Origin: Pantoea sp. RIT-PI-b
GTDB lineage: Bacteria > Pseudomonadota > Gammaproteobacteria > Enterobacterales > Enterobacteriaceae
Reading direction: 5' to 3'
NCBI RefSeq assembly: GCF_001187905.1
Contig: NZ_LGIS01000017.1
Coordinates: forward strand, 1-64,000
DNA length: 64,000 nucleotides
In this document: in pieces, positions 45,196-48,012 of the stretch
How positions within the stretch are numbered: the stretch's first letter is position 1
Layout: every line of letters begins with the position of its first letter
Program-made: the position numbers and the translations under genes
Notes under the pieces: generated by a model
Databases searched by the model: none
The model's input: only the letters and a program-made list of their open reading frames with translations
What the model was told of the DNA's origin: nothing

Positions 45196-45960
45196 ATGAA
45201 CGAGATGATCCGCGTCAGTAATCTCAACCTCAGTTTTGGCGAGGAGGAGCGCTGTAATCAGGTATTGTTTGACGTCAATTTATCGATTCGCCAGGGCGAG
45301 ATTTTTGGTCTGGTCGGCGAGTCGGGATCGGGCAAAACCACGGTGCTGAAATGCCTGGCCGGGCTGTTTACCCACTGGCAGGGCGAGCTGGCGATTGACG
45401 GCGTCGCGCTGGAGCATCGCATCGCCCGCGAGCGTTGCCGCAGCGTGCAGATGGTGTTTCAGGATCCTTACGGATCGCTCCATCCGCGCCACACTATCGG
45501 CGATATTCTTGAGGAGCCGCTGCAGATTCACGGTATCGGACAGCGCCAGCAACGGGTGATCGCGATGCTGGAAAAAGTGGGCCTCAATCGCGCGTGGCAA
45601 ACACGCTATCCGCATCAGCTCTCCGGCGGTCAGCGACAGCGCGTCGCCATTGCTCGTGCGCTGATCCTTGAGCCGCGCGTATTGCTGCTGGATGAACCGA
45701 CGTCAGCGCTGGATGTATCGGTGCAGGCGGAGATCCTCAACCTGCTCAGCGACTTGCAGCAGCAGGAGAAGCTGACCTATTTGATGGTCACGCACGATCT
45801 CGGCGTGGTGGCGCATCTGTGCCATCGCGTGGCGGTCATGCAGCATGGCAAAGTGCTGGAGACACTGGATGTCGATGCGCTGGTAAACAACCGCGCGCAA
45901 GTGGCCTATACGCAGATGCTGGTCGATGCGAGTCGGCAGGATAATGGGGTTTTGGCGTAG
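45196..45960 (+). CDS. ABC transporter ATPase, DppF type
   Basis: 254 residues. Walker A is GESGSGKTT, signature LSGGQRQRV, Walker [12 protein letters not shown], switch MVTHDLGVV. Shorter than E. coli DppF (334), lacking most of the C-terminal regulatory extension. A GGAG site precedes the ATG. It ends the six-gene operon that begins with the enolase-superfamily gene, and a GTAGGG-type repeat follows it. Confidence 0.9.
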   Translation: MNEMIRVSNLNLSFGEEERCNQVLFDVNLSIRQGEIFGLVGESGSGKTTVLKCLAGLFTHWQGELAIDGVALEHRIARERCRSVQMVFQDPYGSLHPRHTIGDILEEPLQIHGIGQRQQRVIAMLEKVGLNRAWQTRYPHQLSGGQRQRVAIARALILEPRVLLLDEPTSALDVSVQAEILNLLSDLQQQEKLTYLMVTHDLGVVAHLCHRVAVMQHGKVLETLDVDALVNNRAQVAYTQMLVDASRQDNGVLA

Positions 45961-45970
45961 GTTCGCCATT

Positions 45971-46008
45971 GATGGTGAGCAGGTGCGCATCAATGCGCAC
46001 CCTACGAA
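45971..46008. repeat. GTAGGG-type intergenic hairpin repeat, copy 1
   Basis: A 38-bp element containing AGGTGCGCATCAATGCGCAC and ending CCTACGAA. A second copy in inverted orientation, with two differences, is at 63166-63203. Confidence 0.75.
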
Positions 46009-46011
46009 CAA

Positions 46012-46060
46012 ATTACTGCGTCAGTTCACGCACAAAGCGCGCAATTTCCTCACTCTGACC
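46012..46060 (-). pseudogene. duplicated 3' end of the RpiB-family gene
   Basis: 49 bp identical but for one base to 47291-47339, the 3' end of the RpiB-family gene. On the minus strand it still reads GQSEEIARFVRELTQ and stop. The match weakens upstream (NEKGQS against FEHGQS), so it looks like the end of a slightly different allele. The Fic gene lies between the two copies. Confidence 0.8.
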
Positions 46061-46087
46061 CTTTTCATTAACACGCCGCTGCAATTA

Positions 46088-47113
46088 TCAAATAACACGC
46101 CAGTAACCGCCTTTGGCAGCACCGACTCGTTGCAGACGATAAAGTGATTGTAACGTTTTGAGATTACGTTCAACTGTCCTGCTGCTCACGCCCAGCAGCT
46201 GCGAGAGATCGGCAATCGTCATCTCAGGTGATTTACGCAGAGCAGACAGTATTTTCTCAGCGGTTACGGAAAGTTTAGCCGATGGTTTCTCCGACATTTT
46301 CTCCGACACTTTCTCCGACACAATCCCCTTTGAGGTGTCGATTGAAACAGTACGAGAGCCAATCCCTTCAGCCAGCGCCTCGATCAATTTTTCCAGCATA
46401 AATGCGATAAACGGCGTGCAGTCACTGCTGCGATCGCATTCCCCTAAAACGCGATAATAGTGTTGTTGTTGATTATGGATCAGCGTTTCAACCGGTAGCC
46501 AGGCAAATTCAGTACGCCATTCACTGAGAATCAAGGTTTGCCATAATCTTCCCATGCGCCCATTGCCATCAGTGAAAGGGTGAATAAATTCAAATTCGTA
46601 GTGGAAGATTGAACTGGCAATCAGCGGATGAATATCCGTTTGTTTAACCCAACCGAGTAAATCACCTATCAGCCTTGAGACCTGGTTTGCAGGCGGAGCC
46701 ATATGGATAAGTTGCTGTTCGCGATAGACACCCACATTGCCATTGCGTAATTGGCCCGGCGCATCAACCAGCCCGGTCATCAACAACCGATGTGCCGACA
46801 GTAAATCGCTAAGGTTGCCACTTTGCCAAACATTGAGTTTTTCATAAGCCAGAATGGCGTTGCGCACTTCCTGAATATCTTTAGCCGGAGCCAACACGCG
46901 CTTGCCTTCCATAATCGCAGTCACCTGTTCAGTTGACAGACTATTATGCTCAATAGCCAGCGAAGCTTGAATGGTGCGGATACGATTCTCTTTACGTAAA
47001 AGCGGTGAGGATTGTTCTGCCTGAGCGGCCCAGCGCCCTAATAACTCACCAACCTCAATCACCTGATTCAGGATAGTAGGCGTAATGGTGTAAGGCGGCT
47101 GATAACCTGCCAT
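46088..47113 (-). CDS. Fic family protein with C-terminal winged helix
   Basis: 341 residues. The Fic motif HPFTDGNGRMGRLW (about residues 177-190) is complete, so AMP transfer to a Ser, Thr or Tyr of a target is possible. An N-terminal SLAIEHNSLS resembles the inhibitory helix of class II Fic proteins, with Glu placed to block ATP. A linker rich in SEK repeats (SEKVSEKMSEK) follows, then a helix-turn-helix (TIADLSQLLGVSSRTVERNL), so it may also bind DNA. GGGAGAG precedes the ATG. It lies between two copies of the RpiB-family gene's end, suggesting insertion. There is no antitoxin gene beside it; regulation in cis fits its class. Confidence 0.85.
   Translation of the reverse strand: MAGYQPPYTITPTILNQVIEVGELLGRWAAQAEQSSPLLRKENRIRTIQASLAIEHNSLSTEQVTAIMEGKRVLAPAKDIQEVRNAILAYEKLNVWQSGNLSDLLSAHRLLMTGLVDAPGQLRNGNVGVYREQQLIHMAPPANQVSRLIGDLLGWVKQTDIHPLIASSIFHYEFEFIHPFTDGNGRMGRLWQTLILSEWRTEFAWLPVETLIHNQQQHYYRVLGECDRSSDCTPFIAFMLEKLIEALAEGIGSRTVSIDTSKGIVSEKVSEKMSEKPSAKLSVTAEKILSALRKSPEMTIADLSQLLGVSSRTVERNLKTLQSLYRLQRVGAAKGGYWRVI
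46286..46321 (-). repeat. three 12-bp repeats in the fic linker
   Basis: TTTCTCCGACAT/C occurs three times in a row (plus strand). Each adds Val/Met-Ser-Glu-Lys to the Fic protein's linker. In-frame and prone to copy-number change. Confidence 0.8.
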
Positions 47114-47290
47114 GCATCTCTCCCTGGATAACGGCTGAACTTAAGAATTTGGCTAAAGCGGTGATATTAAGCATGACCTGCGAGGATATTACAATTTTAG
47201 GCATCGTGTGACGGGGAAGCGTGAGATTTAAAATCCGGCAGTGATAAAACAACCAAGCCAGGTTTCCCTGGCTTAGTTAAACGCGTCTCG

Positions 47291-47339
47291 ATTACTGCGT
47301 CAGTTCACGCACAAAGCGTGCAATTTCCTCACTCTGACC
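47291..47339. repeat. 49-bp direct repeat, native copy
   Basis: Native counterpart of 46012-46060, at the 3' end of the RpiB-family gene. The two copies lie 1,279 bp apart in direct orientation. Confidence 0.8.
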
Positions 47340-47930
47340 ATGCTCAAACAGTGCATGCTGCAGACGTGGGCCGCTCAACGCGGTTCTCACCAGTTCAGGG
47401 TCGATGGCGCGCAGTGAATCGAGGTAGTTCTCTTTCAGCAATGCCGCTTTCACCTGATTAAGCAATCCGGCATTGCGCACCTGCGGCTCTTTGCGCTCTG
47501 GCGGATAGCCGTGCCCTTTCTCGCCGGTGAAGGCTTTTTCGAAGATAAAGCGCAGGTTCAATTCCGCGCCCCAGCCGAAGCCTTTGGCGAACGGCAGCGA
47601 CAGCGCATTGCCGTTATTGATTTGCGCAAACAGGTAGGCATCGGCGGGATCGATGCAGTAACCGCACACCACGCCCGGATGCAGGTTAAGCGACATCAAG
47701 GCGCCCTGTCCGGTGCCGCAGCCGGCCACCACGAAATCCACGGCTTGGCTGTTCAGCAGCACGTTGGCCATGATGCCGAGGTGAATGTAGGTCAGATGAT
47801 GATCTTGCTCGTCGCTCATACCGACGTTAAACACCTGATGTCCGAGCGGTTGCGCCACGGACTGAAGCTCTTTCAACACCGTTGCGTTCTTCGCAGCCTG
47901 GCTGTTTTCCATCATCAAAGCGATTTTCAT
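47292..47930 (-). CDS. RpiB/LacA/LacB family isomerase, probable unsaturated-uronate pathway enzyme
   Basis: 212 residues. MKIALMMENSQAAKNATVL at the start and DFVVAGCGTGQGALMSLN (with the catalytic Cys) plus GYCIDPADAYLFAQINNGNA show the RpiB/LacAB fold. It is longer than RpiB (~150), as in the uronate-related members. Streptococcal DhuI, an isomerase of 4-deoxy-hexosulose-uronate, belongs to this family (recalled). Its divergent partner is kdgF and a KdgR box lies between, so a role in pectin- or glycosaminoglycan-derived uronates is likely. The exact step is inferred. Confidence 0.8.
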   Translation of the reverse strand: MKIALMMENSQAAKNATVLKELQSVAQPLGHQVFNVGMSDEQDHHLTYIHLGIMANVLLNSQAVDFVVAGCGTGQGALMSLNLHPGVVCGYCIDPADAYLFAQINNGNALSLPFAKGFGWGAELNLRFIFEKAFTGEKGHGYPPERKEPQVRNAGLLNQVKAALLKENYLDSLRAIDPELVRTALSGPRLQHALFEHGQSEEIARFVRELTQ

Positions 47931-47948
47931 GATCCATCCTCAGATTAA

Positions 47949-47968
47949 ATTGAAACACCGTTTCATTT
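47949..47968. promoter_or_regulatory. KdgR operator
   Basis: ATTGAAACACCGTTTCATTT fits the KdgR consensus with TGAAA/TTTCA arms. It lies 19 bp from the RpiB-family start and 90 bp from the kdgF start. Confidence 0.8.
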
Positions 47969-48012
47969 TAATCAAAGAACGGTAAAATGCAGCCTTTAAA
48001 TGCCTTTTTGAC

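What the first reader, a model, noticed from the sequence alone, without database searches (positions are those of the whole stretch)
46012..47339. Fic gene lodged between two copies of the RpiB-family gene's 3' end
A 49-bp direct repeat (one mismatch) brackets the fic segment. One copy is the real end of the RpiB-family gene, the other still encodes its last 15 residues and stop. The second copy reads slightly differently further upstream, as if from another allele. This is the pattern of a cassette that integrates at a gene end and restores it.
Basis: partly seen in the sequence, partly recalled or inferred. Interest (0 to 1): 0.6.

Follow-up and report, generated by a model that had tools for sequence, protein, structure and literature searches.

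The report
Resident fic gene beside duplicated gene-end
A fic gene sits between two ordinary genes in a few Pantoea species, and a short stray copy of the neighbouring gene's end lies on its far side; this looks more like a recombination scar than a mobile cassette.

Summary
The repeat is real: 46012-46060 and 47291-47339 match at 48 of 49 bases and bracket a complete fic gene. The outer copy still encodes the last 15 residues and stop of the RpiB-family gene. It is the only direct repeat family of 35 bp or more reported in the window. A second rpiB end downstream of rpiB occurs in 2 of 30 loci tested: here and, decayed, in G023. The cassette reading does not hold up well. Two sister genomes (G004, G046) carry fic collinear at this place without the repeat. 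The same-species genome G099 (flanks about 99%) has one rpiB end and a fic fragment, not a clean empty site. The hairpin 19 bases after the inner rpiB stop recurs at that offset in one fic-less relative and near it in another (2 of 25), so the inner end looks native. Only fic is a gene candidate between the copies. Best reading: fic is an old resident of the rpiB-abcF gap in one clade, decaying in three of six genomes, and the outer copy is a recombination scar. The mechanism is inferred; interest is low.

The parts
46012..46060 (-). Outer copy of the RpiB-family gene's last 15 codons and stop
   Evidence: 48 of 49 bases to 47291-47339
47291..47339 (-). Inner copy: true 3' end of the RpiB-family gene
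46088..47113 (-). fic gene, 341 aa, Fic core and C-terminal winged helix
   Evidence: Pfam; nearest solved relative 4rgl E 2.2e-100
46269..46316 (-). 12-bp tandem units coding the linker between Fic core and winged helix
   Evidence: the repeat finder D3
46059..46087 (.). Stretch between outer copy and fic stop; resembles the start of an interspersed repeat of sister genomes
47257..47272 (-). Hairpin core of the likely rpiB terminator, 19 bases after the stop
   Evidence: Same offset in L002-L005 (no mismatch) and fic-less L012 (one mismatch)
45963..46008 (.). REP-like unit (label recalled), at least 41 other matching places in the own genome
47292..47930 (-). RpiB/LacAB-family gene, 212 aa
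45196..45960 (+). abcF, ABC transporter ATP-binding gene, convergent neighbour

Best explanation
The fic gene was gained by the ancestor of a small Pantoea clade, between the convergent genes rpiB (with its own terminator) and abcF, and is now a resident that several members are losing. The 49-bp outer copy of the rpiB end is a secondary scar on fic's far side. Most likely DNA carrying fic, terminator and rpiB end re-entered this lineage and recombined by homology on the rpiB side, with a non-homologous joint on the other (for instance a single crossover with a closed circle whose rpiB part was truncated), which leaves a partial copy of the gene end. Shown: the shared site, the decay series, the hairpin shared with two fic-less relatives, the repeat, and a fic segment more diverged from G099 than its flanks. 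Inferred: the single gain, the recombination route and its order.
For: Fic is collinear at one site in G000, G004, G046; remnants in G023, G099 and, by eye only, G052. G099 flanks are 99.2% and 98.8% identical, but the shared fic stretch has 11 differences in 110 against at most 6 in any of 1243 flank windows of that size, which points to allele replacement in one of the two. The blastn match to G099 stops at 46011, the base before the outer copy. Hairpin after the inner stop shared with fic-less L012 and L016. The window's outer copy is nearest its own species' rpiB end. In an E. coli conjugation study 56 of 60 clones gave a PCR product for duplication of part of the target gene end, confirmed in 14 sequenced clones (109-950 bp), which the authors assign to single crossover with a circle that had lost part of its homology (PMC3240628, passages read).
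Against: A recipient with the REP-like unit directly beside the rpiB stop, which the one-step model needs, was not found. G023 also has a copy that starts at the stop codon on the same side of fic, which one recent event in this strain does not explain. The excess divergence of the G099 fragment may partly be pseudogene decay. The hairpin is missing in 23 of 25 fic-less loci. The 49-bp copy is shorter than the duplications in the cited experiment, and the strictly one-sided route (HFIR) is said there to give mostly deletions and is rare in E. coli.
Confidence: 0.55

Rival explanations
1. The outer copy is old, made when fic first arrived or in the ancestor of G000 and G023. It was lost in G099, G004, G046 and G052, and kept near identical to the true rpiB end in G000 by gene conversion.
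For: Copies in two species, both starting at the stop codon and on the same side of fic. The G023 copy is not clearly nearest its own rpiB end: 21 of 22 bases ungapped to its own and 20 of 22 to the window's, but with gaps G052's end scores higher (22.5) than its own (20.5, equal to G046). The bases after the rpiB stop group G000, G099 and G023 against G004, G046 and G052 (by eye).
Against: G004 and G046 have intact fic and no detectable copy. Past its first 22 bases the G023 copy is weak (755 of 20000 stretches do as well). Gene conversion itself is not shown.
Confidence: 0.3
2. A cassette with a 49-bp core integrates site-specifically at the rpiB 3' end and restores the gene, as islands do at tRNA ends (recalled type).
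For: Geometry: near-perfect direct repeat with one copy at a true gene end; the outer copy begins at or one base before the stop codon in two species.
Against: No recombinase candidate among the ORFs between the copies; hairpin of the inner end found in two fic-less relatives; collinear fic without repeat in two sister genomes; the same-species genome shows erosion; no bracketing repeat at ten homologues.
Confidence: 0.07
3. Chance or assembly artefact.
For: Draft genome of 35 contigs; the outer copy adjoins a high-copy REP-like unit.
Against: 48 of 49 bases with one difference; a similar copy in another genome; controls at 4 mismatches or more.
Confidence: 0.05

Closest known systems
Partial gene-end duplication by single crossover, and homology-facilitated illegitimate recombination (PMC3240628, passages read; PMC5361080, passages read)
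   Same: Inserted gene anchored by homology on one side; partial copy of the target gene end (or displaced gene ends) on the other; no recombinase needed
   Different: Recipient and donor are unknown here, and the copy is 49 bp, shorter than the 109-950 bp of the experiment
Integrative islands that restore a gene 3' end (recalled type)
   Same: Direct repeat of a gene end bracketing extra DNA
   Different: No recombinase candidate between the copies, likely native terminator on the inner side, collinear fic without repeats in sister genomes
Bacterial Fic proteins with a C-terminal winged helix (solved relatives: 4rgl, SoFic entries)
   Same: Fic core with an HPFTDGNGR motif and a helix-turn-helix tail
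   Different: Far below the NCBIfam SoFic equivalog cut-off (67.6 against 550 bits), so not a SoFic orthologue by that test

Membership tests
Island restoring a gene end | Direct repeat of the gene end on both sides | tested here: met
   48 of 49 bases
Island restoring a gene end | Own site-specific recombinase | tested here: not met
   Among ORFs of 60 aa or more between the copies only fic is a gene candidate; only fic was scanned with Pfam; a recombinase acting from elsewhere was not looked for
Island restoring a gene end | Inner gene end brought by the element, native downstream DNA beyond the outer copy | tested here: not met
   Hairpin after the inner stop shared with fic-less L012 (offset 19) and L016 (offset 25), one mismatch each; absent from the other 23 of 25 fic-less loci, so the test rests on two
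Island restoring a gene end | Relatives with a clean empty site and one repeat | tested here: inconclusive
   19 of 30 loci have abcF near rpiB, no fic and one rpiB end, but in other species; the same-species genome keeps a fic fragment
Island restoring a gene end | Other cargo between the same repeats in relatives | tested here: not met
   No second rpiB end in 28 of 30 loci; the 13 further rpiB loci of the genus were not examined this way
Single crossover or illegitimate recombination scar | Partial gene-end copy beside a non-homologous joint | tested here: inconclusive
   Similarity to the window's rpiB falls to near chance after 46060, but blastn carried a match to G004's rpiB end on to 46084
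Single crossover or illegitimate recombination scar | Inserted DNA from another lineage | tested here: inconclusive
   11 of 110 differences to G099 against a flank maximum of 6 in 1243 windows; pseudogene decay not excluded
Fic family | Fic domain with HPFx[D/E]GN[G/K]R motif | tested here: met
   Pfam E 5.1e-20; HPFTDGNGR in the translation; motif as given in the abstract of PMC2686095 (listing only)
Fic family | AMP transfer activity | not testable with these tools
   No assay

The most novel reading that the evidence does not exclude
The 1.28-kb fic segment is a small recombinase-less unit that leaves and re-enters the chromosome as a circle through the conserved rpiB end, independently in at least two Pantoea species, so that rpiB ends appear on both of its sides.
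Probability: 0.06. Interest if true: 0.55.

Novelty: new member of a known kind. Interest (0 to 1): 0.18.

Why it matters
It is a worked case in which a textbook-looking cassette signature, a direct repeat at a gene end, is better explained as a recombination scar once sister genomes are read. It also shows a fic gene in turnover inside one small clade: intact in three genomes and broken in three.

Tried and rejected
An inverted rpiB-end copy in G004 and G046 at the corresponding place looked possible by eye but is not above shuffles (66 and 82 of 500 do as well). The same test gave 1 of 500 shuffles as good for the G023 direct copy, and 0 of 500 for the window. Extension of the outer copy beyond 49 bp as a second allele: near chance by shuffle, although blastn against G004 carried it on. 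A mobile family of fic cassettes bracketed by neighbour-gene ends: none at ten homologous loci (L046, L056 and L058 of the 13 loci were not put in). Phage origin: fic relatives in 31 phage records are all under 60% identical. Plasmids: listed fic relatives in Rahnella and Klebsiella are 72-73% identical at the DNA level, and no record covers 80% of the 45700-48000 query (528 of 548 records were not listed). Anti-phage system: the best PADLOC hit is its SoFic model, not taken further. The interspersed-repeat motif search has a background of 1 to 2 hits per genome with the reversed pattern, so the single hit in G000 is within background by count. Papers: searches (listings with abstract starts); passages read in PMC5361080 and PMC3240628. 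I make no claim that this locus is absent from print.

Full report
The observation. Window 46012-46060 and 47291-47339 are a direct repeat with one difference in 49 bases. The inner copy is the end of a 212-aa RpiB/LacAB-family gene (47292-47930, minus). The outer copy keeps its last 15 codons and stop, and the one change is silent. Between them lies a complete 341-aa Fic protein (46088-47113, minus) with a Fic core, a linker of 12-bp units and a winged-helix tail. The repeat finder reported no other direct repeat family of 35 bp or more in the window.

Distribution. Of 61 genomes of the genus, seven match the Fic protein at E 1e-20 or better: three full-length (own, G004, G046; 88-100% identity), one 73-residue remnant (G023) and three distant proteins at about 30%. 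Remnants below that threshold are in G099, by blastn, and in G052, by eye only. For rpiB DNA, 48 of 99 genomes searched matched at E 0.001, 43 of them strongly and in the genus, own included; loci were taken for the best 30. Of these 30, five belong to the fic clade, 19 have abcF near rpiB without a fic match, and six have no abcF in the 1.5 kb held. Of the 19, 17 have gaps of 54-295 bases; L012 has a broken abcF, and L020 has about 0.8 kb of extra DNA that looks by eye like an insertion sequence.

The sister genomes. G004 and G046 have fic, its upstream region and the rpiB hairpin collinear with the window, but the 142 and 189 bases between abcF and the fic stop hold no rpiB end above shuffles. 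G023 has lost all but the last 73 residues of fic, yet has an rpiB-end copy on the far side that starts at the stop codon: 21 of 22 bases to its own rpiB end, 20 of 22 to the window's. Past these 22 bases the match is weak, and with gaps the copy scores better against G052's rpiB end than against its own. Same-species G099 matches the window at 99.2% up to 46011, the base before the outer copy, and at 98.8% from 47245 on. Between them it has a fic fragment (window 46211-46320 at 90%), about 120 bases that blastn does not match to the window, one rpiB end and the same hairpin. The fragment differs from the window at 11 of 110 bases, more than any of 1243 flank windows of that size (maximum 6). 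One of the two strains therefore probably carries an imported allele, though decay of the fragment may add to this.

Which end is native. The hairpin core lies 19 bases after the inner rpiB stop in the window and in L002-L005. In fic-less L012 it lies at the same offset with one mismatch, and in L016 at offset 25 with one mismatch. The other 23 of 25 fic-less loci, among them some closer to the window, have 6 or more mismatches, which is background. The simplest reading, resting on those two loci, is that the inner copy with its hairpin is the undisturbed rpiB end and that fic lies beyond it. Next to the outer copy there is instead a REP-like unit that matches at least 41 other places of the own genome.

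The far flank of fic. This flank is 51 to 673 bases long in the six genomes and by eye holds REP-like or other repeat units. The 27 bases just inside the window's outer copy resemble the start of an interspersed repeat found at 8, 3 and 7 places in G052, G004 and G046 and at 1, 0 and 0 in G000, G099 and G023, with a reversed-pattern background of 1 to 2 per genome (flanks; score test). The place seems to collect small fragments, and the outer copy may be one of them.

Mechanism. A site-specific cassette is disfavoured by the likely native hairpin, collinear fic without repeat in two genomes, the eroded same-species site, the lack of a recombinase candidate between the copies and the lack of bracketing repeats at ten homologues outside the genus. 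A recombination scar fits. In an E. coli conjugation study (PMC3240628, passages read), 56 of 60 clones gave a PCR product for duplication of part of the target gene end beside the inserted DNA, confirmed in 14 sequenced clones and ascribed to single crossover with a circle that had lost part of its homology. The same paper says that one-sided (HFIR) events generally give deletions and that they are rare in E. coli, so the crossover form fits better. PMC5361080 (passages read) proposes the one-sided route for displaced gene ends in Vibrio. That any of this happened here is inference; the recipient form was not found. The main rival is an older duplication kept alike by gene conversion, which the G023 copy favours.

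Verdict. The repeat is real, and fic was added to this place in one clade, but the cassette reading is not supported. Interest is low.

Noticed in passing
window 46269-46316; L051 4768-4853: The linker between Fic core and winged helix is built of 12-bp tandem units whose number seems to differ between genomes by eye; an Ewingella homologue has another 12-bp unit repeated at a similar place.
   Followed up: partly
L075, L077-L093 (G052, G004, G046): An interspersed repeat beginning CCCTTTTCAACAACACGCACTGAAG recurs at several places in three sister genomes and hardly in the window's species.
   Followed up: partly
window 45963-46008; L073 (G046): REP-like unit with at least 41 other matching places in the own genome; in G046 the corresponding unit appears by eye to carry a nested palindromic insert.
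   Followed up: no
L020 (G006), downstream of rpiB: What looks by eye like the start of an insertion-sequence transposase gene lies between rpiB and abcF.
   Followed up: no
L012 (G026), abcF: abcF appears broken: tblastn gives two overlapping pieces in different frames.
   Followed up: no
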